Assembly: GCA_040755755.1 (NCBI GenBank)
Contig: JBFLZW010000031.1
Coordinates: 62,001 to 126,000 of the forward strand
Direction: 5' to 3'
DNA from: a bacterium
Lineage (GTDB): Bacteria; SZUA-182; DTGQ01
Length of the DNA: 64,000 bases
Below are positions 45,511 through 53,411 of the stretch, in pieces. Every line of letters starts with the position of its first letter. The first letter of the stretch is position 1. The notes beneath the pieces are model-generated. The model searched no databases, was not told the origin of the DNA, and saw only the letters and a list, made by a program, of their open reading frames with translations. The translations under genes and the position numbers were made by a program.

Positions 45511-45888
45511 ATGGTTATCGTCGATACTTCTCTTTGGGTTACCCACCTGAGAGAAGGCAACAACCACCTTGAAGAATTGCTGCTGAATGGAGAAGTACTC
45601 TGTCATCCCTTCATCGTCGGTGAATTGGCGTGTGGGAACATCAAAAACAGAGTTGAATTACTGACGCTTCTTCAATCACTTGAGATGGCTCCAACTGTCA
45701 CCTTGGATGAACTATTGTATTTTATTGAGCGAAATAGATTAATGGGCAAAGGGGTCGGTTTTGTTGATGCACACCTATTAGCCTCAGCCCAATTAGCGGA
45801 AGTGCCCTTATGGACTTCTGATAAGAGATTGAAATCATCGGCAATTGACCTTAAAGTCGCCTATAAAGACGGGGCTGTTATATTCTGA
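45511..45888 (+). CDS. vapC: VapC PIN-domain toxin
   Basis: The 125-residue protein has the four PIN acidic sites: Asp5 in VIVDTSLWV, Glu in FIVGELACG, Asp in GVGFVDAHLLAS and Asp in LWTSDKRL. All appear intact. VapC toxins cut tRNA or rRNA. It is encoded directly after vapB, which should neutralise it. Confidence 0.92.
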   Translation: MVIVDTSLWVTHLREGNNHLEELLLNGEVLCHPFIVGELACGNIKNRVELLTLLQSLEMAPTVTLDELLYFIERNRLMGKGVGFVDAHLLASAQLAEVPLWTSDKRLKSSAIDLKVAYKDGAVIF

Positions 45889-45928: not shown

Positions 45929-46894
45929 TTAATGTTTCCAGAGCTTCTTCAAAATGGAAAGCGGGCCTTTGGTGTCTTTATTCTCAGGGGCATCCTTGTG
46001 CTGGTGTCCTTCCCCTTTTTGATCGGAGGAAGGGGAACCCGGACGCTCATTGGAGGAGGGCTTTGGTATTTCAGCCAGGCGGCCGCTGCCCAGAAAGCGA
46101 AACAGGGGCCCCAAGGGGCCGAGGGACAGCTCATCGCCGGGATTGAGCGGTGACTGAAGGTCGATGGGCTGCCGGTTGACCATAATCAATCGTTGTCCCG
46201 TGAGGTCCTTGACCCAGTAGCGATCCTGACTGTAGAAGACCTGGACATGCTGACCCTGGATACCAGGATGGTCAAGCTGAAAATCGCAGCTTGCCTCTTT
46301 TCCCATGGTAACCGGCACCGCTTTGTATGAGCGCAGCGTAGGGCCATACTGGATAATGAGGGGGACTCTCACGTTGTGCACCACGACTTTGCCTGCTGCC
46401 TCGACAGGCTCAGGATGAAGGGGTGGGGGTTCGGGCTGGAGGAAGGGGTGCTCAGGCTCCAGCCGGGAAGATGAATCCGGTTCACTCTCCGGGGGATGAT
46501 GCGGCGGTGAAGGCAGGGGGCCGCTTTGCTGCGGAGCCGGGAGAACGCTTTCTTTCCCGGCTTGGTTTTCCTGAATCTGGGTCAGGAAGCTGACCTTTGG
46601 CCCGCCTTCGGCAAAAGACAACACGTCTCCGTTCTTCAGGTACGCCTCTTCAACCACTCTCTTGCCGTTGACAAAGGTGCCATTGGTGCTGTGGTCTACC
46701 AATTTAAAGCGATTTCCGTCTCGGACTATTTCGGCATGGTTGCGGGAAATTATGGTCAGATCCGCCGGGAACTTCAAATGACATGACTGGTGGCGGCCAA
46801 TGGCAATCCTGGCTTCGGAAAACTCCTGAATTTCGCCCTTGAGAGGCCCTTGAATATGAACGAGTTGAACGGTAATAACCGGCTGTTGCTTCAT
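45929..46894 (-). CDS. Double FHA-domain protein
   Basis: The 321-residue protein has a canonical N-terminal FHA domain (residues 20-100: IGRHQSCHLKFP, ISRNHAEI, DHSTNGTFVNGKRV), a proline-rich linker (about 118-165) and a second, weaker FHA-like domain (about 178-270: VTMGKEASCDFQLDHPGIQG, HVQVFY). The tail is charged. FHA domains bind phosphothreonine peptides. It is divergent from the PP2C gene, with the kinase further along, so it is a likely reader of the kinase's marks. No membrane segment is seen. Confidence 0.88.
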   Translation of the reverse strand: MKQQPVITVQLVHIQGPLKGEIQEFSEARIAIGRHQSCHLKFPADLTIISRNHAEIVRDGNRFKLVDHSTNGTFVNGKRVVEEAYLKNGDVLSFAEGGPKVSFLTQIQENQAGKESVLPAPQQSGPLPSPPHHPPESEPDSSSRLEPEHPFLQPEPPPLHPEPVEAAGKVVVHNVRVPLIIQYGPTLRSYKAVPVTMGKEASCDFQLDHPGIQGQHVQVFYSQDRYWVKDLTGQRLIMVNRQPIDLQSPLNPGDELSLGPLGPLFRFLGSGRLAEIPKPSSNERPGSPSSDQKGEGHQHKDAPENKDTKGPLSILKKLWKH

Positions 46895-46954
46895 TGGGAA
46901 TAAAAATTATCTGATGGTAAATGGTTTATCATCCTGTTTGCAGTCCAGAACTCA

Positions 46955-46984
46955 ATTATAGCCTGAATCTCGCATTTCTTGCAA
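46955..46984 (-). promoter_or_regulatory. Sigma-70 promoter of the FHA gene
   Basis: On the minus strand TTGCAA (46979-46984), 18 bases, and a perfect TATAAT (46955-46960). The leader to the ATG at 46894 is about 54 bases. Confidence 0.6.
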
Positions 46985-47087
46985 GAAAATAATTATTTAC
47001 AACCTGCCATAAGTTTACTAAAATAGGATTGACTTTTAACCTTTCTCATGAGAGGATCTATAACCACCAAATTGAAAGGCGATGCCT

Positions 47088-47810
47088 ATGACAGTCTCAT
47101 TTGGACAATCAGATCCTGGCCTCAGACGCTCGAATAATGAAGATGCTTTCATCATCATATCCGAAGCGGACCTTCTGGCAGTGGCCGATGGAATGGGCGG
47201 GGCAGCGGCTGGTGAGGTGGCCAGCCGGATATTTATTGAATCCGCCTCGGCACTTTCCGGCGGTGCGAAGTGTCAATCCGAGCAGGAAGCCCTTGTCAGG
47301 GTCCAGGATATCTTCAGATCAGCCAATGAAAAAATTATTAACCATGCCAGGCAGAACCCTCAGTGCCGGGGAATGGGGTGTACCGCCGAAGTCATTGTCT
47401 TCACCAGCCAGGGTTATGTTCTTGGCCATGTAGGAGACAGCCGCACCTATCTGCTGCGAGCGGGACAACTGAAACGATTGACGCATGATCACTCTGTGGT
47501 CCAGGAGCAGATCGACCAGGGCCTCATCACGCCAGAGGATGCCAGAAAACATCCCCTCAAAAGTGTTATCCTCAGAGCTGTAGGTGTCAACGAACAGTTG
47601 GCCCTTGACCTGATACGGGATAAAACCGTTCCCGGCGACCTTTTTCTCCTCTGCTCCGACGGTCTGACAGATATGATTGACGATTCCTTCATCAAGGATA
47701 TCCTTTCCCGTCCCCTGACTCTTTCTCAAAAGGGAACCCAGTTAATCGAGGCTGCCAAATCAGCCGGGGGGTATGACAACGTAACGGTAGTTCTCGGTGA
47801 AGTAAAGTGA
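47088..47810 (+). CDS. PP2C-family Ser/Thr protein phosphatase
   Basis: The 240-residue protein has the metal-binding motifs of bacterial PP2C (Stp/PphA type): RRSNNEDAF, LLAVADGMGGAAAGE, VGDSRTYLLR, LLCSDGLTDM and the final GGYDNVTVV. It is a single cytoplasmic domain. The second ATG (47088) has AAAGG at proper distance; the first (47082) is too close to it. It should remove the phosphates set by the kinase encoded two genes downstream. It opens the plus-strand run PP2C, protease-like, kinase, TPR/CsgG, lipoprotein. Confidence 0.94.
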   Translation: MTVSFGQSDPGLRRSNNEDAFIIISEADLLAVADGMGGAAAGEVASRIFIESASALSGGAKCQSEQEALVRVQDIFRSANEKIINHARQNPQCRGMGCTAEVIVFTSQGYVLGHVGDSRTYLLRAGQLKRLTHDHSVVQEQIDQGLITPEDARKHPLKSVILRAVGVNEQLALDLIRDKTVPGDLFLLCSDGLTDMIDDSFIKDILSRPLTLSQKGTQLIEAAKSAGGYDNVTVVLGEVK

Positions 47811-47816
47811 TTGACC

Positions 47817-48764
47817 ATGAGCAAGTTCACTCGGGCGTGGATGGTCCTGGCCGTTGCCGCTGTCACGGTTTTTCTGCTGTTTGCGTTTGCCGGGGCTGGA
47901 AGCGCGGACGTGGAGTTCAGATCGTATCCTTTTCCTCTGCCGGAGGTGGAGGATGTCATTTCACGATGGCTGCACAGCAACGGCTTTGAGATCGTCCGTG
48001 CTTGCCGGGAAGGGGGCCAGGTCCACCTGGGAGCGATGAAAGAAGGCGAGCGCTGGCAGATCATGCTCAAGCCCCGCTCTCCCCTGGCCTCGGAGGTCCA
48101 GGCCGAATACTTCCGGCAGGGGCAGCCCGATCAGGCGCTCCAGAAAGAACTATGGGCCCATCTGCAAAGATATGCCCGGAATCCTGCTGCCGAACAAGAG
48201 GATTACGGTGTCCCCTCCCCGGTTTTGGCCCACAGTGAATCGGTGGTCTGCATCAAAGCCGAGCGGGGAGGAAAACCGATTCAGTTCTCCGGTTTCATTA
48301 TTGACCGGGAGGGGTTAATATTAGGAACAGCCCATGACCTTGAAGGGATCCAGGAGGTCAGGGTTATTCTCGATAACGGCCATGAGCTGAACGGACAACT
48401 ATGCAGGGCCGATCATGACCGGGATTTGGCTCTTATTGCCGTCAAGACCAGGTTCGATGCCTGCATTTCTCTTTCCCGGGGACGAAACCTCCTGAGCATG
48501 GGTGAAAAGGTGTTTTCGATCGGATGTCCCGTCAATCTGCAGGGAACGGTCCATGCCGGTTTCATCGACGGCCCTCCGAGGAAGGTGAATACTCTGCTCC
48601 TGTGGCAGGTGAATATGGAAGTCCTGCCGGGAAGCAGCGGCAGCCCGGTGTTTGATACCCAGGGAAACGTGGTGGCTGTTGTCAAGGGCAGATACCGCGG
48701 CACGGATTCAGTGGGCTTTCTGATCCCAATGGAGACGATCAGAGAATTTATGGGACAAAAATAG
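47817..48764 (+). CDS. Membrane-anchored trypsin-like (S1C) serine protease
   Basis: The 315-residue protein has an N-terminal anchor or signal (AWMVLAVAAVTVFLLFAFAG), an unrecognised domain (residues 31-135) and a trypsin fold with a complete triad: His173 in TAHDL, Asp203 in DRDLALI and Ser276 in GSSGSPVFD. There is no PDZ domain, unlike DegP. The active site should be periplasmic. The ATG at 47817 comes 6 bases after the phosphatase stop; a TTG directly after that stop is the alternative. The kinase gene follows after 13 bases, so the three are surely cotranscribed. Confidence 0.86.
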   Translation: MSKFTRAWMVLAVAAVTVFLLFAFAGAGSADVEFRSYPFPLPEVEDVISRWLHSNGFEIVRACREGGQVHLGAMKEGERWQIMLKPRSPLASEVQAEYFRQGQPDQALQKELWAHLQRYARNPAAEQEDYGVPSPVLAHSESVVCIKAERGGKPIQFSGFIIDREGLILGTAHDLEGIQEVRVILDNGHELNGQLCRADHDRDLALIAVKTRFDACISLSRGRNLLSMGEKVFSIGCPVNLQGTVHAGFIDGPPRKVNTLLLWQVNMEVLPGSSGSPVFDTQGNVVAVVKGRYRGTDSVGFLIPMETIREFMGQK

Positions 48765-48777
48765 GACGGAAGTTAGC

Positions 48778-50010
48778 ATGTTATTACAGTATGGACGGTA
48801 TCAGATCGAAAATGAGCTTGGCAAGGGAGCTATGGGGGTGGTCTACCGGGCCCATGATCCCCGGATTGACCGGTCAGTCGCTTTGAAGGTCCTGCGTCCG
48901 GACCGGGTCACCAACGAGGATTTCGTCCAGCGGTTCCTCAAGGAGGCTAAAGCGATTGGCAGGCTTTCGCATCCCAATATCGTTACTGTCTATGACGTCG
49001 GGCAGGATCAGGACACGATCTTTATTGCCATGGAATTTCTCGATGGCAAACCTCTTCATACGATCTTGCAGGAAGCAAAACCGGATATTGGCACCATCGT
49101 CGATCTTGGCATCCAGGTAGCCTGTGCCCTCGATTATGCCCACCAGAAGGGAATCGTTCACCGGGATATCAAGCCCGGCAATATTATTGTCCAGCCCGAT
49201 GGCCGGGTGAAAATAACCGACTTCGGAATTGCCCATATCGAAGATTCCTCGGCCACGCAGCAGACCAGGGCGGGAGAGATTCTCGGCAGCCCGGCTTATA
49301 TGTCCCCCGAACAGGTGATGGGCCAGCCGGTGGACGGACGCTCAGATCTGTATTCGCTGGGCGTTGTCCTCTACGAGCTGTGCGCCGGGAAGCGGCCCTT
49401 CCAGGAAGATAACCTGGCCGCTCTTTTCAGGGCCATTACTCAGGATAATCCCCCTGAACTGTCAGCTCTCGACCCGGCAATCCCCCCCCTGCTTTCGCAG
49501 ACAATCGTAAAGTGCCTGAGCAAGCAGCCGGAGAAACGCTTTCAGACCGGCCTTGCCCTGGCCGATGCCCTGAAGACCTGCCTGAAGAAGACAAAAGCCG
49601 CCCCGACCGGACAGGATCGGCCAAAGGGCAGGTTCCTGGTGCTCCTGATCGCGGTTTTCCTGATCAGTATCACGGCGGGGATTTTGGTCTATTTCTTCGG
49701 CTCAGCCAGGGATGATCGTCTTCCTCCTCCTTCTCCTCCTCCGTCGGTTACGGAGCAGCAACCGCCGCCGACTGGAGAAGCGCCTCCGGTGATTGCTTTT
49801 CTCAAGGTCGAAAGTACGCCCGTCGGTGCCCAGATTTTCGTGGATGGAACCCTGCACGGGAAAACGCCTGCCCGGCTTGAGCTTGCGCCCGGAAAACATG
49901 AGGTCCGGCTGACTTTGCCCGCTTATTTTGACTGGGAAGCCCAGGTTCAGTTACCCGAAAAGGTCGAGACCCCTCTCCTGGTCCGGCTGATGCCGACCGA
50001 GGAGGAGTAG
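48778..50010 (+). CDS. Transmembrane Ser/Thr protein kinase with PEGA domain
   Basis: The 410-residue protein has a PknB-type kinase domain (residues 7-268) with the glycine loop GKGAMGVVY, Lys37 in VALKVLR, catalytic Asp130 in HRDIKPGN, Asp148 in TDFG, and SPAYMSPEQ. One membrane helix (about 285-307) follows, then a proline-rich spacer and an extracytoplasmic PEGA domain (341-405: LKVESTPVGAQIFVDGTLHG). PEGA domains are usually surface or cell-wall associated. All catalytic residues are present, so it is an active transmembrane kinase with a possible wall sensor. Confidence 0.95.
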   Translation: MLLQYGRYQIENELGKGAMGVVYRAHDPRIDRSVALKVLRPDRVTNEDFVQRFLKEAKAIGRLSHPNIVTVYDVGQDQDTIFIAMEFLDGKPLHTILQEAKPDIGTIVDLGIQVACALDYAHQKGIVHRDIKPGNIIVQPDGRVKITDFGIAHIEDSSATQQTRAGEILGSPAYMSPEQVMGQPVDGRSDLYSLGVVLYELCAGKRPFQEDNLAALFRAITQDNPPELSALDPAIPPLLSQTIVKCLSKQPEKRFQTGLALADALKTCLKKTKAAPTGQDRPKGRFLVLLIAVFLISITAGILVYFFGSARDDRLPPPSPPPSVTEQQPPPTGEAPPVIAFLKVESTPVGAQIFVDGTLHGKTPARLELAPGKHEVRLTLPAYFDWEAQVQLPEKVETPLLVRLMPTEEE

Positions 50011-50100
50011 TGGTCAGTGGTCAGTGATCAGTGGTTAGTGGCTGGAATCCAGAAGTCAGGAGAAAAACAGCCCTTATTCTGACTCCTGACTCCTGAATTC
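50011..50100. repeat. Degenerate heptamer tandem repeat
   Basis: A string of GTCAGTG-type units (GTGGTCAGTGGTCAGTGATC) is followed by GACTCCTGACTCCTGA units. Similar strings occur at 59645-59740 and 61681-61735. It separates the kinase gene from the TPR/CsgG gene without a visible promoter. Confidence 0.75.
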
Positions 50101-50121
50101 TTTAAAAAAAAGGAGTGTCAG

Positions 50122-52116
50122 ATGAAGATTACCCGAAAATGCCGTGCCGTCAGTTTGATCCTCACCCTTGGTTTTTTCCTCTCGGGAATGGGCGTAAGCT
50201 ATGGCCAGATCGCACCCGGCCAGTCCGCTCCGCTCTTTTCCCTGAAGGATATCGCCGGAAAATCCCATGACCTGGCCCAGATGAAAAATCAGCCCATGAT
50301 TATTCTCTACTTCTTCGATGCAGAATCGAGGCCGAGCCAGGAAGGAATCGTAAGCCTGAATCAATTGGCCAGACAATACAAGGGCTATGACCTGACCACC
50401 CTGGCCATTACCCTCTCTCCGCGGGCCAAGATCGATCAGTTCAGGAAGCAGACCGACCTAGGGTTTCCCATCATCCAGGACCAGTCCGGGATCAGCGACC
50501 GGTATCAGGCCCGGCAGATACTGCCCACGGTCTGCATTATCGGGCCGGGTCTTCGCGTTCTCGACCATTTTCAGGGCGGAGGCAAAACCACCGAAGTGAT
50601 GCTGGTCAGGCTGGCCGAGAGGGAATTACAGAGAAAACAGACCACGCTGGCTAAAGCCATCAGCGCCGAGGTGGTAAAAAAGAACCCTCACAATACCAGG
50701 GCCAAAACAGTGGCTGGTTATGCAGCCCTCAGGGAGGGGAACCTCAAGCAGGCGCAGGAGGTTTTCCAGAACCTGGCCAAAGACAGCGGACAGGCAGAGG
50801 TACTTGGCAAAGAAGGGCTGGCCGCCGTTCATGTCCAGAAGGGAGAGGCGGCCAGAGCCCTTGAGCTGGCCAGAGAGATAGAGCACAAAGCTCCTGAAAG
50901 ATCCTATGTCCATGTCATCAAGGGAGATATTCTCGCCAGTCAGGATAAAAAGCAGGAGGCCGAGGCGGAATATCAGAAAGCGATAGCCAAGAAGGATGCC
51001 GAGCCGTACCAGGAAGCGGTCAGGCATAACCAGCTTGGCCGGTTGTATGCAAGCAGCGGACAGTATCAAAAGGCGCGTGAGCTTTACGACCAGGCGGTGG
51101 CCATCGATCCTTATTACATCGAGGGGACGACCAACAAGGGGATAACCTACCAGAAAGAAGGCAATTGGGATAAAGCCCTGGAATCCTTTCAGCAGGCCGT
51201 CACCCTTGACAAGGGCGATACCTTTGCGGTTGTCCTGGCCAAAAAAGCCCAGGAGATGCTGGAGTTCCAGAAAGACAACGAGCGTAAAAAACGGGTTGAC
51301 CAACTGGTGAAAGACCTGGCCGAGCGGTACCGCAGTCAGGAGAAGTCCAGGCCAAAGGATGAAGATACCTGGACCTCCCGGCCCATGATTATCTCCTTTG
51401 TCGATTTTCAGGAAAAAGGCGGCCTGGCCGAGCGGGATGGCTTCTCGACCGTGATGACCAGCCAGTTAAGCGATTCCCTGACCGCCTCGAACCGGGTCCA
51501 GGTGGTGGAGCGGGTGCTGATCGAGCGTCTCATGGAGGAGTTGAACCTTGGTTCTTCGGATCTGGCTGATCAGGAAACTGCGCTCAAGCTTGGCCGGGTA
51601 CTGGCCGCCAAACTGATCGGCACCGGATCCCTCTTTTACCTGCCCAACGGGACGCTCCTGAATCTCAGGCTCATCGACAGCGAAACCTCAGCCATCCCTT
51701 TGGTGATCACCCGGCAAATCAGCCCCCAGGCATCTCTGGAAAAAGAGCTTTACGCCCTCAACCGGCAGATATTAAGGACAGTCATGGAAAAGTATCCCCT
51801 GCACGGGTATCTGGTTGAAGTCACAGGAGATCAGGCCCTGGTTAACCTCGGCTCCCGCCAGGGAGTGGTTCAGGGGACACGGTTTGAAGTGCTGGAAGAA
51901 GGCAAGCCGATCACCTACAAGGGGAAGACGCTCCAGAGCTCACCAAAAATCATCGCCCAGGCCGAGGTTGTCCGGGTTGAGCCTGACCTGTGCCATATCC
52001 GGATCATCAGCCAGGAAAGACCCCTGAAAACCGATGACAAGGTCCAGGAGAGAATCGCGGAAGCGGTCCTGGGAGAAGGCAGCGAAGAAGGTAGTGGAAG
52101 CAGGGATCATGAATAG
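50122..52116 (+). CDS. Secreted thioredoxin-fold / TPR / CsgG-domain protein
   Basis: The 664-residue protein has a signal peptide (ISLI-type hydrophobic core, LILTLGFFLSGMGVSYG), a peroxiredoxin/TlpA-like domain (28-170), TPR repeats (about 185-375) and a CsgG-like domain (415-540: IISFVDFQEKGGLAERDGF, VQVVERVLIERLMEELNLG). An OB-like C-terminal part (VNLGSRQGVVQGTRFEVL) follows. The redox site is missing: FFDAESRPSQEG stands where WCxxC should be, so it is probably a binding rather than a redox domain. AAGGAG precedes the ATG. It overlaps the lipoprotein gene by 8 bases. Confidence 0.85.
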   Translation: MKITRKCRAVSLILTLGFFLSGMGVSYGQIAPGQSAPLFSLKDIAGKSHDLAQMKNQPMIILYFFDAESRPSQEGIVSLNQLARQYKGYDLTTLAITLSPRAKIDQFRKQTDLGFPIIQDQSGISDRYQARQILPTVCIIGPGLRVLDHFQGGGKTTEVMLVRLAERELQRKQTTLAKAISAEVVKKNPHNTRAKTVAGYAALREGNLKQAQEVFQNLAKDSGQAEVLGKEGLAAVHVQKGEAARALELAREIEHKAPERSYVHVIKGDILASQDKKQEAEAEYQKAIAKKDAEPYQEAVRHNQLGRLYASSGQYQKARELYDQAVAIDPYYIEGTTNKGITYQKEGNWDKALESFQQAVTLDKGDTFAVVLAKKAQEMLEFQKDNERKKRVDQLVKDLAERYRSQEKSRPKDEDTWTSRPMIISFVDFQEKGGLAERDGFSTVMTSQLSDSLTASNRVQVVERVLIERLMEELNLGSSDLADQETALKLGRVLAAKLIGTGSLFYLPNGTLLNLRLIDSETSAIPLVITRQISPQASLEKELYALNRQILRTVMEKYPLHGYLVEVTGDQALVNLGSRQGVVQGTRFEVLEEGKPITYKGKTLQSSPKIIAQAEVVRVEPDLCHIRIISQERPLKTDDKVQERIAEAVLGEGSEEGSGSRDHE

Positions 52117-52642
52117 AAGAGCATGGCTGACAGGTCTTATCCTGGTTGGATTTTTTTGCGCCTCCTGCACGTTGCGTCAATCCCTGCCCCTTGGGCAGGG
52201 CACAGCGATGGAAAAGGATACTGCAATTGAAAAGGGTGCTGCGGTAGCTGTCTGGGATTTCGATAACTTGAGCCCATCTGCCGAAGGCCAGCCGCCTTCA
52301 CTGGGAGAGCTTCTCTCCGCTCAGGTTATGGAATCGCTCCAGTCTCGCGGGGATGTAACGGTCATCGAGCGGCAGCGGCTGCACCTGGCCCTTGAGGAGC
52401 TTAAATTGGGATCGACCTCACTGGCGGATGAGGCCACACGGTTAAAGCTCGGCCATCTGGTGGGAGCCCGGCTGATGGTTTTTGGAGCCTACCAGGCGAT
52501 CGCCGGCACCATGCGCCTCGACCTGCGGCTGGTCGAAGTGGAAACCGGCAAGGTGCGTAATGCTGTCAAAGGAACGGCTTCGAGCGGGGATATGGCCGAA
52601 TGGCTGAAGACCGCCAGGGAAGCCGCGGCAGGGCTGCTGTAG
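52109..52642 (+). CDS. CsgG-domain lipoprotein
   Basis: The 177-residue protein has a short signal ending FFCASC, a plausible lipobox with Cys20. It then has one CsgG-like domain (VAVWDFDNLSPS, VTVIERQRLHLALEELKLGS, LARL-type core HLVGARLMVFGAY, LRLVEVETGKV) similar to that in the upstream protein (same ELxLGSxxLAD pattern). It may form or line an outer-membrane structure with that partner. The ATG at 52109 overlaps the upstream stop; the earlier frame is a shadow. Confidence 0.85.
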   Translation: MNRRAWLTGLILVGFFCASCTLRQSLPLGQGTAMEKDTAIEKGAAVAVWDFDNLSPSAEGQPPSLGELLSAQVMESLQSRGDVTVIERQRLHLALEELKLGSTSLADEATRLKLGHLVGARLMVFGAYQAIAGTMRLDLRLVEVETGKVRNAVKGTASSGDMAEWLKTAREAAAGLL

Positions 52643-52667
52643 GGCACACATTCTCCGAAAATTCTAT

Positions 52668-52961
52668 TCAGGGATGAGAAGTTATTGCAATGATGGTAAT
52701 TTGACCTGCATCAGGACCATAATACCAAAAGACCCTATATGCCGCAGGAGTGGATTGTTCAGCATAAGCTTCAAAGACTTTTTCTTTTTCGGGTCCTTTT
52801 AAGCTGGTGAATTCATGGGTTTCAAGACTTTTATGTCTTGGATTTTCAGCTAATAAATGGACAGTCCTGGTTACTGCCTTGTACCTTTTTTCGAGTCCCT
52901 TGTCAGTTTTAAGCCTCTCTAATTGCTTTTTTGCCTGATCAGTAAGGAAGATTTCAAACAA
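52668..52961 (-). CDS. RelE/ParE-superfamily toxin
   Basis: The 97-residue protein begins FEIFLTDQAKKQLERL, has a helical middle (RYKAVTRTVHLLAENPRHKSLETHEF) and beta strands ending AAYRVFWYYGPDAGQITIIAI, the usual order of RelE/ParE toxins. Which target it has (ribosome-bound mRNA or gyrase) cannot be told. The antitoxin gene is 11 bases upstream. Confidence 0.85.
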   Translation of the reverse strand: MFEIFLTDQAKKQLERLKTDKGLEKRYKAVTRTVHLLAENPRHKSLETHEFTSLKGPEKEKVFEAYAEQSTPAAYRVFWYYGPDAGQITIIAITSHP

Positions 52962-52972
52962 AACTGGCTATC

Positions 52973-53254
52973 CTAAAATTCATCAAGATTAAGTTTCGAT
53001 ATCTTGCCCTCGGATGCATCCTTTAAGCCGTCCATAACACTTTCAAGGGCTTCTTTATTTTGAAAAAGCCAAACCTCTGAAGCTGGAATTTCTGCTATAG
53101 GTTGTAAGAGAATCTCTCCCCGGTTATTTTTATATAGTCTGACTCTTTTATAACCCTTCAAAAGATCACCCAGAGTAATTCGTGTTCTGTCGTCAATTGT
53201 TTTAGTATCAACCTCTTGAAATTCATCATTAATCTGCAGGGTATTATTTTTCAT
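52973..53254 (-). CDS. Antitoxin partner of the RelE/ParE toxin
   Basis: The 93-residue protein starts at 53254 (MKNNTLQINDEFQEVD) where AGGAGGT is ideally placed. A longer frame from 53302 is not supported. The DDRTRITLGDLL and LYKNNRGEILLQPIAEIP segments resemble an AbrB-like swapped hairpin, and the acidic helix ESVMDGLKDASEGKISKLNL probably binds the toxin. Confidence 0.8.
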   Translation of the reverse strand: MKNNTLQINDEFQEVDTKTIDDRTRITLGDLLKGYKRVRLYKNNRGEILLQPIAEIPASEVWLFQNKEALESVMDGLKDASEGKISKLNLDEF

Positions 53255-53411
53255 AGTATCACCTCCTGAACAGAATATACTATAATTCCCATATTGGGTC
53301 AATGGGCAATTCTATTCCTCCAGCAATTCTAATTATGAACTTTTATGGACAATTTAACCTCACATCTTTCGGGATTGGATAGAGGTTTATAGCGGTTCCC
53401 GGTTGAGTGGA

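What the first reader, a model, noticed from the sequence alone, without database searches (positions are those of the whole stretch)
45929..52642. Compact kinase-phosphatase-FHA-protease-CsgG envelope signalling cluster
Seen: six adjacent genes. A double-FHA protein is divergent from a tight run of PP2C phosphatase, membrane-anchored S1 protease, transmembrane Ser/Thr kinase with PEGA, secreted thioredoxin-fold/TPR/CsgG protein and CsgG lipoprotein, with overlaps or gaps of 6-13 bases except one repeat-filled gap. Known: FHA domains bind pThr, PP2C reverses kinases, and PEGA and CsgG domains are envelope-associated. Inference: a writer, eraser and reader in the cytoplasm are joined to an outward-facing protease and a CsgG-based outer-membrane structure. 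I know of no named system with this set; type VI secretion has FHA/PP2C/kinase trios, but no secretion genes are here.
Basis: partly seen in the sequence, partly recalled or inferred. Interest (0 to 1): 0.78.

Follow-up and report, generated by a model that had tools for sequence, protein, structure and literature searches.

The report
Envelope-linked control module for type VI secretion
The six genes are a real, widely conserved set that occurs only in genomes carrying a type VI secretion system (a molecular harpoon used against neighbouring cells), so they most likely form a kinase switch that fires the harpoon in response to events in the cell envelope, using sensor parts not described before.

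Summary
In detail: six adjacent genes with the stated domains, tightly packed. The same order (FHA divergent from PP2C, protease, kinase/PEGA, Trx/TPR/CsgG, CsgG lipoprotein) recurs in about 17 other loci, and protease-kinase-TPR/CsgG is kept in nearly all of about 30. In relatives the cluster lies beside or inside type VI secretion (T6SS) islands. In 296 sampled genomes of one phylum, the protease (16), full-length TPR/CsgG protein (17) and FHA protein (17) occur only in the 36 genomes with the T6SS sheath gene. In the window's phylum the only two genomes with the cluster are the only two of nine with T6SS. The window's genome has a complete T6SS core on another contig, without FHA, kinase or PP2C genes. 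The 'CsgG' proteins are soluble CsgG/LpoB/FlgT-fold domains without pore hairpins, so a CsgG pore is not supported. Best reading: a T6SS threonine-phosphorylation (PpkA-PppA-Fha-like) module with a new envelope arm: PDZ-less HtrA-fold protease, cysteine-free thioredoxin-TPR-FlgT-like protein, CsgG-fold lipoprotein. The linkage is shown; regulation and sensing are inferred.

The parts
45929..46894 (-). Double-FHA protein (321 aa): FHA1 canonical, FHA2 degenerate; conserved lysine-rich C-terminal tail; Fha/TagH-like reader
   Evidence: Pfam FHA x2; best NCBIfam match TIGR03354 T6SS FHA protein TagH, 86.8 bits, below its cut-off of 120; FHA1 G/R/S/H/N kept in 56-57 of 57 relatives, FHA2 lacks them
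46895..47081 (.). Divergent intergenic region with promoter-like sites on both strands (- 46984-46955, + 46996-47024)
   Evidence: consensus scan only
47082..47810 (+). PP2C-type Ser/Thr phosphatase (242 aa), eraser (PppA role)
   Evidence: Pfam PP2C_2; NCBIfam Stp1/IreP PP2C above cut-off
47817..48764 (+). Exported HtrA/Deg-fold serine protease without PDZ, with an N-terminal domain matching no known family; triad H175, D205, S276 (numbered from the TTG at 47811)
   Evidence: Trypsin_2; triad residues invariant in 16 orthologs; AlphaFold mean pLDDT 88; DegP/AlgW fold Z 26.7, rmsd 1.7, 184 residues
48778..50010 (+). Ser/Thr kinase, one transmembrane helix (about 49633-49701), periplasmic PEGA domain; writer (PpkA role)
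   Evidence: Pkinase and PEGA; catalytic residues and activation-loop T163 invariant in 14 orthologs
50011..50121 (.). Intergenic repeat: 14-bp direct repeat and 18-bp inverted repeat
   Evidence: the length of this gap varies widely in relatives
50122..52116 (+). Exported protein (664 aa): cysteine-free thioredoxin/ResA-fold domain, TPR array, CsgG/FlgT-like domain, FlgT_C-like domain
   Evidence: Pfam; alignment of 15 orthologs; AlphaFold mean pLDDT 84.5; Foldseek FlgT 3w1e E 1.8e-8; ResA fold Z about 16
52109..52642 (+). CsgG/LpoB-fold lipoprotein (177 aa), probably outer-membrane, no transmembrane hairpins seen; overlaps the previous gene by 8 bases
   Evidence: Pfam CsgG 9.7e-13 and LpoB 1.5e-5; invariant lipobox cysteine C20 in 10 orthologs

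Best explanation
The cluster is a post-translational control module for type VI secretion. In the cytoplasm a transmembrane kinase (PpkA role), a PP2C phosphatase (PppA role) and an FHA protein (Fha role) would make a phosphothreonine switch: kinase on, FHA1 binds a phosphorylated target, T6SS assembles, PP2C resets it. Outside, the CsgG-fold lipoprotein and the thioredoxin-fold/TPR/FlgT-like protein would form an envelope sensor or scaffold that talks to the kinase's PEGA domain, with the HtrA-like protease cutting or clearing a periplasmic component to set or end the signal. This arm would stand in for TagQRST of Pseudomonas, RtkS of Serratia or TssW of Acidovorax. Shown here: conserved gene set, exclusive co-occurrence with T6SS, physical adjacency to T6SS cores in relatives, intact kinase, FHA1 and protease active-site residues. 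Inferred: regulation of T6SS, direction of signalling, the sensing role and the protease's substrate.
For: T6SS sheath gene TssC is in 36 of 296 genomes of one phylum; the protease is in 16, full-length TPR/CsgG in 17 and the FHA protein in 17, all inside those 36 (hypergeometric 7e-17 for 16 of 16, 5e-18 for 17 of 17). In the window's phylum cluster and TssC coincide: 2 of 2 against 0 of 7. Eight of 16 protease genes lie within 31 kb of TssC; adjacent genes include VgrG, ClpV, DUF2169, PAAR-like, TssJKLM and a TssB-TssC fusion. The window's genome has a full T6SS core on contig C72 (TssA-C, E-G, J-M, Hcp, VgrG, TagF) without FHA, kinase or PP2C genes. That contig also carries orthologs of the barrel and third CsgG protein found beside the cluster elsewhere. 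The kinase-PP2C-Fha pathway is an established T6SS switch fed by envelope sensors (PMC10482370, PMC11881912, PMC12607579).
Against: No experiment. In the window's genome the cluster and the T6SS core lie on different contigs. The FHA protein scores below the TagH cut-off and lacks the T6SS FHA C-terminal domain; the phosphatase is called Stp1-like, a general family. The genome has a second small PP2C-FHA-kinase group on contig C37. Twenty of the 36 T6SS genomes lack the protease, so the module is an option, not a requirement. Counts are not corrected for relatedness.
Confidence: 0.72

Rival explanations
1. The periplasmic genes encode a structural collar, not a sensor: the FlgT-like/CsgG proteins form an envelope ring that anchors and aligns the T6SS membrane complex, as the FlgT-containing H-ring does in the Vibrio flagellum, and the HtrA-like protease opens the way or removes misfolded subunits. 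The kinase, PP2C and FHA regulate its assembly.
For: FlgT is among the best Foldseek matches of the model and the flagellar LPHT ring is also listed; CsgG/TolB-fold proteins often form oligomers (general knowledge); a third CsgG protein and an outer-membrane barrel are linked in many relatives.
Against: Many T6SS genomes lack these genes, so they are not core structure; no ring was modelled; FlgT TM-scores are low (0.17/0.27) because only part of the protein aligns.
Confidence: 0.3
2. A general envelope-stress or cell-wall kinase operon (Stp1/PknB-like) that co-occurs with T6SS only because both sit in the same kinds of genomes.
For: PP2C matches Stp1 above cut-off; the kinase's best model is the PASTA kinase PknB.
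Against: No PASTA domains and below the PknB cut-off; co-occurrence is exclusive in 296 genomes and in a second phylum; physical adjacency to T6SS cores.
Confidence: 0.12
3. One reading: a signalling cluster joined to a CsgG-type secretion pore in the outer membrane.
For: Pfam CsgG matches in two proteins.
Against: Matches stop at about position 98 of 210; the model of the CsgG domain has a tight hairpin (498-507/510-519) where CsgG carries an extra transmembrane hairpin (hairpin position in CsgG from general knowledge); the lipoprotein is only 158 residues from its lipobox cysteine on, against 262 for a mature CsgG chain in the PDB; LpoB, FlgO and FlgT models match the same parts.
Confidence: 0.05

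Closest known systems
T6SS threonine phosphorylation pathway PpkA-PppA-Fha with TagQRST (Pseudomonas aeruginosa H1-T6SS)
   Same: Transmembrane kinase with a periplasmic part, PP2C phosphatase, FHA reader, outer-membrane lipoprotein and periplasmic partner; tied to T6SS; a TagF gene in the T6SS core
   Different: Nothing here was annotated as TagQ, TagR or the TagST ABC transporter (not searched for by name); instead a PDZ-less HtrA-fold protease, a cysteine-free thioredoxin-TPR-FlgT-like protein and a CsgG-fold lipoprotein; PEGA in the kinase; two FHA domains, the Fha C-terminal domain being a separate gene beside TssJ
TssW-PpkA-Fha axis (Acidovorax citrulli, PMC12607579) and RtkS-PpkA (Serratia, PMC10482370)
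   Same: A lineage-specific envelope protein that activates or positions T6SS through the kinase (tssW is encoded between ppkA and fha)
   Different: Single accessory proteins; here three exported proteins in the operon, two more linked in relatives; homology to TssW or RtkS was not tested
FlgT/FlgO flagellar proteins and LpoB
   Same: CsgG/TolB-like domain plus FlgT_C-like domain; lipoprotein with LpoB similarity
   Different: Fused to a thioredoxin-fold domain and TPRs; linked to T6SS, not to flagella or PBP1B
DegS/AlgW/DegP (HtrA) envelope proteases
   Same: Protease fold and triad; exported
   Different: No PDZ; N-terminal domain of no known family; operon with kinase and phosphatase

Membership tests
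T6SS threonine phosphorylation pathway (PpkA-PppA-Fha) | Kinase, PP2C and FHA genes together | tested here: met
T6SS threonine phosphorylation pathway (PpkA-PppA-Fha) | T6SS in the same genome | tested here: met
   TssC in G000 and G003; full core; exclusive co-occurrence
T6SS threonine phosphorylation pathway (PpkA-PppA-Fha) | Encoded in the T6SS gene cluster | tested here: inconclusive
   Other contig in the window's genome; within 31 kb of TssC in 8 of 16 relatives
T6SS threonine phosphorylation pathway (PpkA-PppA-Fha) | FHA protein of the TagH/Fha family including the T6SS_FHA_C domain | tested here: not met
   TIGR03354 is the best match but below cut-off; no FHA_C in this protein; a T6SS_FHA_C-like gene stands alone in the T6SS core (21.6 bits against a cut-off of 23.7)
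T6SS threonine phosphorylation pathway (PpkA-PppA-Fha) | Kinase phosphorylates a target and turns on T6SS | not testable with these tools
   needs experiment
CsgG curli secretion pore | Two transmembrane hairpins forming a barrel | tested here: not met
   Only profile 10-98 of 210 matched; short loops in the model of the larger protein; lipoprotein too short. The lipoprotein itself was not modelled.
HtrA/Deg proteases | Trypsin-like HtrA fold with His-Asp-Ser triad | tested here: met
HtrA/Deg proteases | C-terminal PDZ domain | tested here: not met
   protein ends with the protease domain at residue 317; no PDZ match
Thioredoxin/AhpC/ResA oxidoreductases | Catalytic cysteines | tested here: not met
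   YFFDxxSRPSxEG-type sequence in place of the CxxC region in 15 orthologs
PknB/Stk1 PASTA kinases | Extracellular PASTA repeats | tested here: not met
   PEGA instead; below the NCBIfam cut-off, 328 against 450

The most novel reading that the evidence does not exclude
A distinct T6SS subtype in which the envelope arm is a FlgT/CsgG-fold periplasmic assembly with its own HtrA-like protease, so that proteolysis in the periplasm, read out by a kinase and FHA switch, decides where and when the T6SS is built.
Probability: 0.35. Interest if true: 0.82.

Novelty: new variant of a known kind. Interest (0 to 1): 0.64.

Why it matters
How outer-membrane damage or contact reaches the T6SS kinase is unresolved even in Pseudomonas (PMC11881912 proposes an unknown signal). 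This module offers a different and compact answer with a protease and defined periplasmic partners, found in mostly uncultured lineages, and gives a concrete gene list for testing. It also assigns a likely role to several conserved proteins that carry only generic domain matches.

Tried and rejected
CsgG outer-membrane pore: rejected on model coverage, loop lengths and protein length. Redox sensing by the thioredoxin domain: unlikely, no catalytic cysteines. General cell-wall kinase (PknB/Stp1): disfavoured by the exclusive T6SS co-occurrence. Tree of four concatenated proteins (quick method): the window and G003 fall near each other at an unresolved place, so neither transfer nor vertical descent can be claimed. 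N-terminal domain of the protease: no family or PDB sequence match; it was not folded and searched on its own. Literature: no paper in the library describes this set; absence in that library is not proof.
Full report
Observation. The FHA gene is divergent from the other five. Spacing is 6 bases (PP2C to protease ATG at 47817), 13 bases (protease to kinase), 111 bases (kinase to TPR/CsgG) and an 8-base overlap (TPR/CsgG to lipoprotein). The 111-base gap holds a direct repeat and an inverted repeat. Promoter-like sites face both ways in the divergent gap (consensus only).

Gene order elsewhere. A scan of 84,980 species genomes with the FHA protein gave 50 loci, mostly from records titled Deltaproteobacteria, Desulfobacterales or similar. 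A separate search with the protease gave 16 of 296 genomes in the phylum of G009 (record title 'Deltaproteobacteria bacterium NC_groundwater_1633'; the phylum name is not told). In about 17 distinct loci the full order FHA / PP2C-protease-kinase-TPR/CsgG is kept, usually with overlaps or short gaps. All 16 protease genes have the PEGA kinase and the TPR/CsgG protein next to them. The CsgG lipoprotein follows in most. In some loci FHA and PP2C stand elsewhere or are not seen (L142, L144, L153, L154), or PP2C is missing next to the protease (L106, L108). A variant without the protease has a second kinase, with a Cache-like N-terminal part in the two scanned examples (L094, L100, L103, L109, L113, L119). 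In the window's own family, G003 has FHA / PP2C-protease on one short contig and TPR/CsgG-lipoprotein on another, with the missing kinase presumably in the assembly gap.

The link to type VI secretion. The neighbours of the cluster in relatives include VgrG, ClpV, DUF2169 and PAAR-like proteins, an FHA-transglycosylase, a TssB-TssC fusion, and T6SS core genes. In G009 a core running from TssJ to VgrG is followed by the cluster on the same contig, about 17 kb separating TssC from the protease. Co-occurrence was tested on the same 296 genomes: TssC in 36, protease in 16, full-length TPR/CsgG in 17 (ten further genomes show only weak partial matches), FHA protein in 17. Every one of these genomes is among the 36 (hypergeometric 7e-17 for 16 of 16 and 5e-18 for 17 of 17). 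In the window's phylum, of nine genomes only G000 and G003 have the protease ortholog and only these two have TssC. The congener G002 has neither. These counts treat genomes as independent, which they are not, but two phyla agree and the genes are also physically adjacent in many cases.

The window's own T6SS. Contig C72 of the same genome carries TssJ, K, L, M, TagF, ImpE, TssA, B, C, Hcp, TssE, F, G, a ClpV-like gene, VgrG, a PAAR-like protein and DUF2169. No FHA, kinase or PP2C gene like those of the cluster lies there. A T6SS_FHA_C-like gene without an FHA domain lies beside TssJ (just under its cut-off); relatives have the same short gene beside TssJ. About 30 kb from the core, C72 also encodes orthologs of the outer-membrane barrel (33-43% identity) and the third CsgG-TPR protein (46-55%) that flank the cluster in other genomes.

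Parts. FHA1 keeps its phosphothreonine-binding residues in 56-57 of 57 relatives while FHA2 does not. The kinase is complete, with an invariant activation-loop threonine. The protease keeps its triad in all 16 orthologs, models well and matches HtrA proteases (Z 26.7, rmsd 1.7, 184 residues), but has no PDZ domain and has an N-terminal domain for which no relative was found. The 664-residue protein has a ResA-like thioredoxin fold without the catalytic cysteines, a TPR array, and a C-terminal part that resembles FlgT. The lipoprotein matches CsgG and LpoB models only over the soluble core. In the model of the larger protein the strands that carry the pore hairpin in CsgG are joined by a tight turn; the position of the hairpins in CsgG is from general knowledge. 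An outer-membrane CsgG pore is therefore not supported.

Mechanism. The T6SS threonine phosphorylation pathway is known: PpkA phosphorylates, Fha reads, PppA resets, and envelope proteins (TagQRST, RtkS, TssW) feed the kinase (PMC10482370, PMC11881912, PMC12607579). The cluster supplies the same three cytoplasmic roles and a different envelope arm. That it controls T6SS is a strong inference. That the arm senses envelope damage or contact, and that the protease sets or ends the signal, is a weaker one. A structural collar is the main rival.

Novelty. No paper in the searched library describes this set. It is a new variant of a known kind of switch, with an unfamiliar sensing side.

Noticed in passing
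window 45511-45888 (+) and 52661-53302 (-): A PIN-domain toxin-like gene beside the cluster, and two small genes of toxin-antitoxin look downstream of it; only the PIN gene was confirmed by Pfam.
   Followed up: partly
window 50011-50121: Repeat AGTGGTCAGTGGTC/AGTGATCAGTGGTT plus an 18-bp inverted repeat between the kinase and TPR/CsgG genes; looks like an inserted repeat element; its copies elsewhere in the genome were not counted.
   Followed up: partly
L071:10988-12553 and L149:5216-6790: TssB-TssC fusion-like proteins (about 520 aa) next to the FHA gene in many relatives, in addition to normal TssC; possibly a scaffold or sheath initiator. Not found in the window's genome (one search shows a single TssC match).
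   Followed up: partly
L163:1129-1932 (G000 C72): A gene resembling the T6SS FHA C-terminal domain stands alone beside TssJ, split from any FHA domain.
   Followed up: partly
L183:3847-6753 (G000 C37): A second small group that looks like VWA, PP2C, FHA and kinase-FHA genes on a short contig, followed by a winged-helix-looking gene.
   Followed up: no
L065:1566-4065 (G003 C512): A partial second copy of the TPR/CsgG C-terminus (62% identity) beyond an AAA-type ATPase gene; recombination or assembly repeat.
   Followed up: no
L100:4107-5747, L113:3893-5548: In protease-less variants a second kinase with a Cache-like sensor region takes a place in the operon, suggesting interchangeable sensors.
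   Followed up: partly
L157, L158, L159: Some genomes hold a second TPR/CsgG-lipoprotein pair away from the cluster; there the cluster's own TPR/CsgG protein has a diverged CsgG motif and no adjacent lipoprotein.
   Followed up: partly
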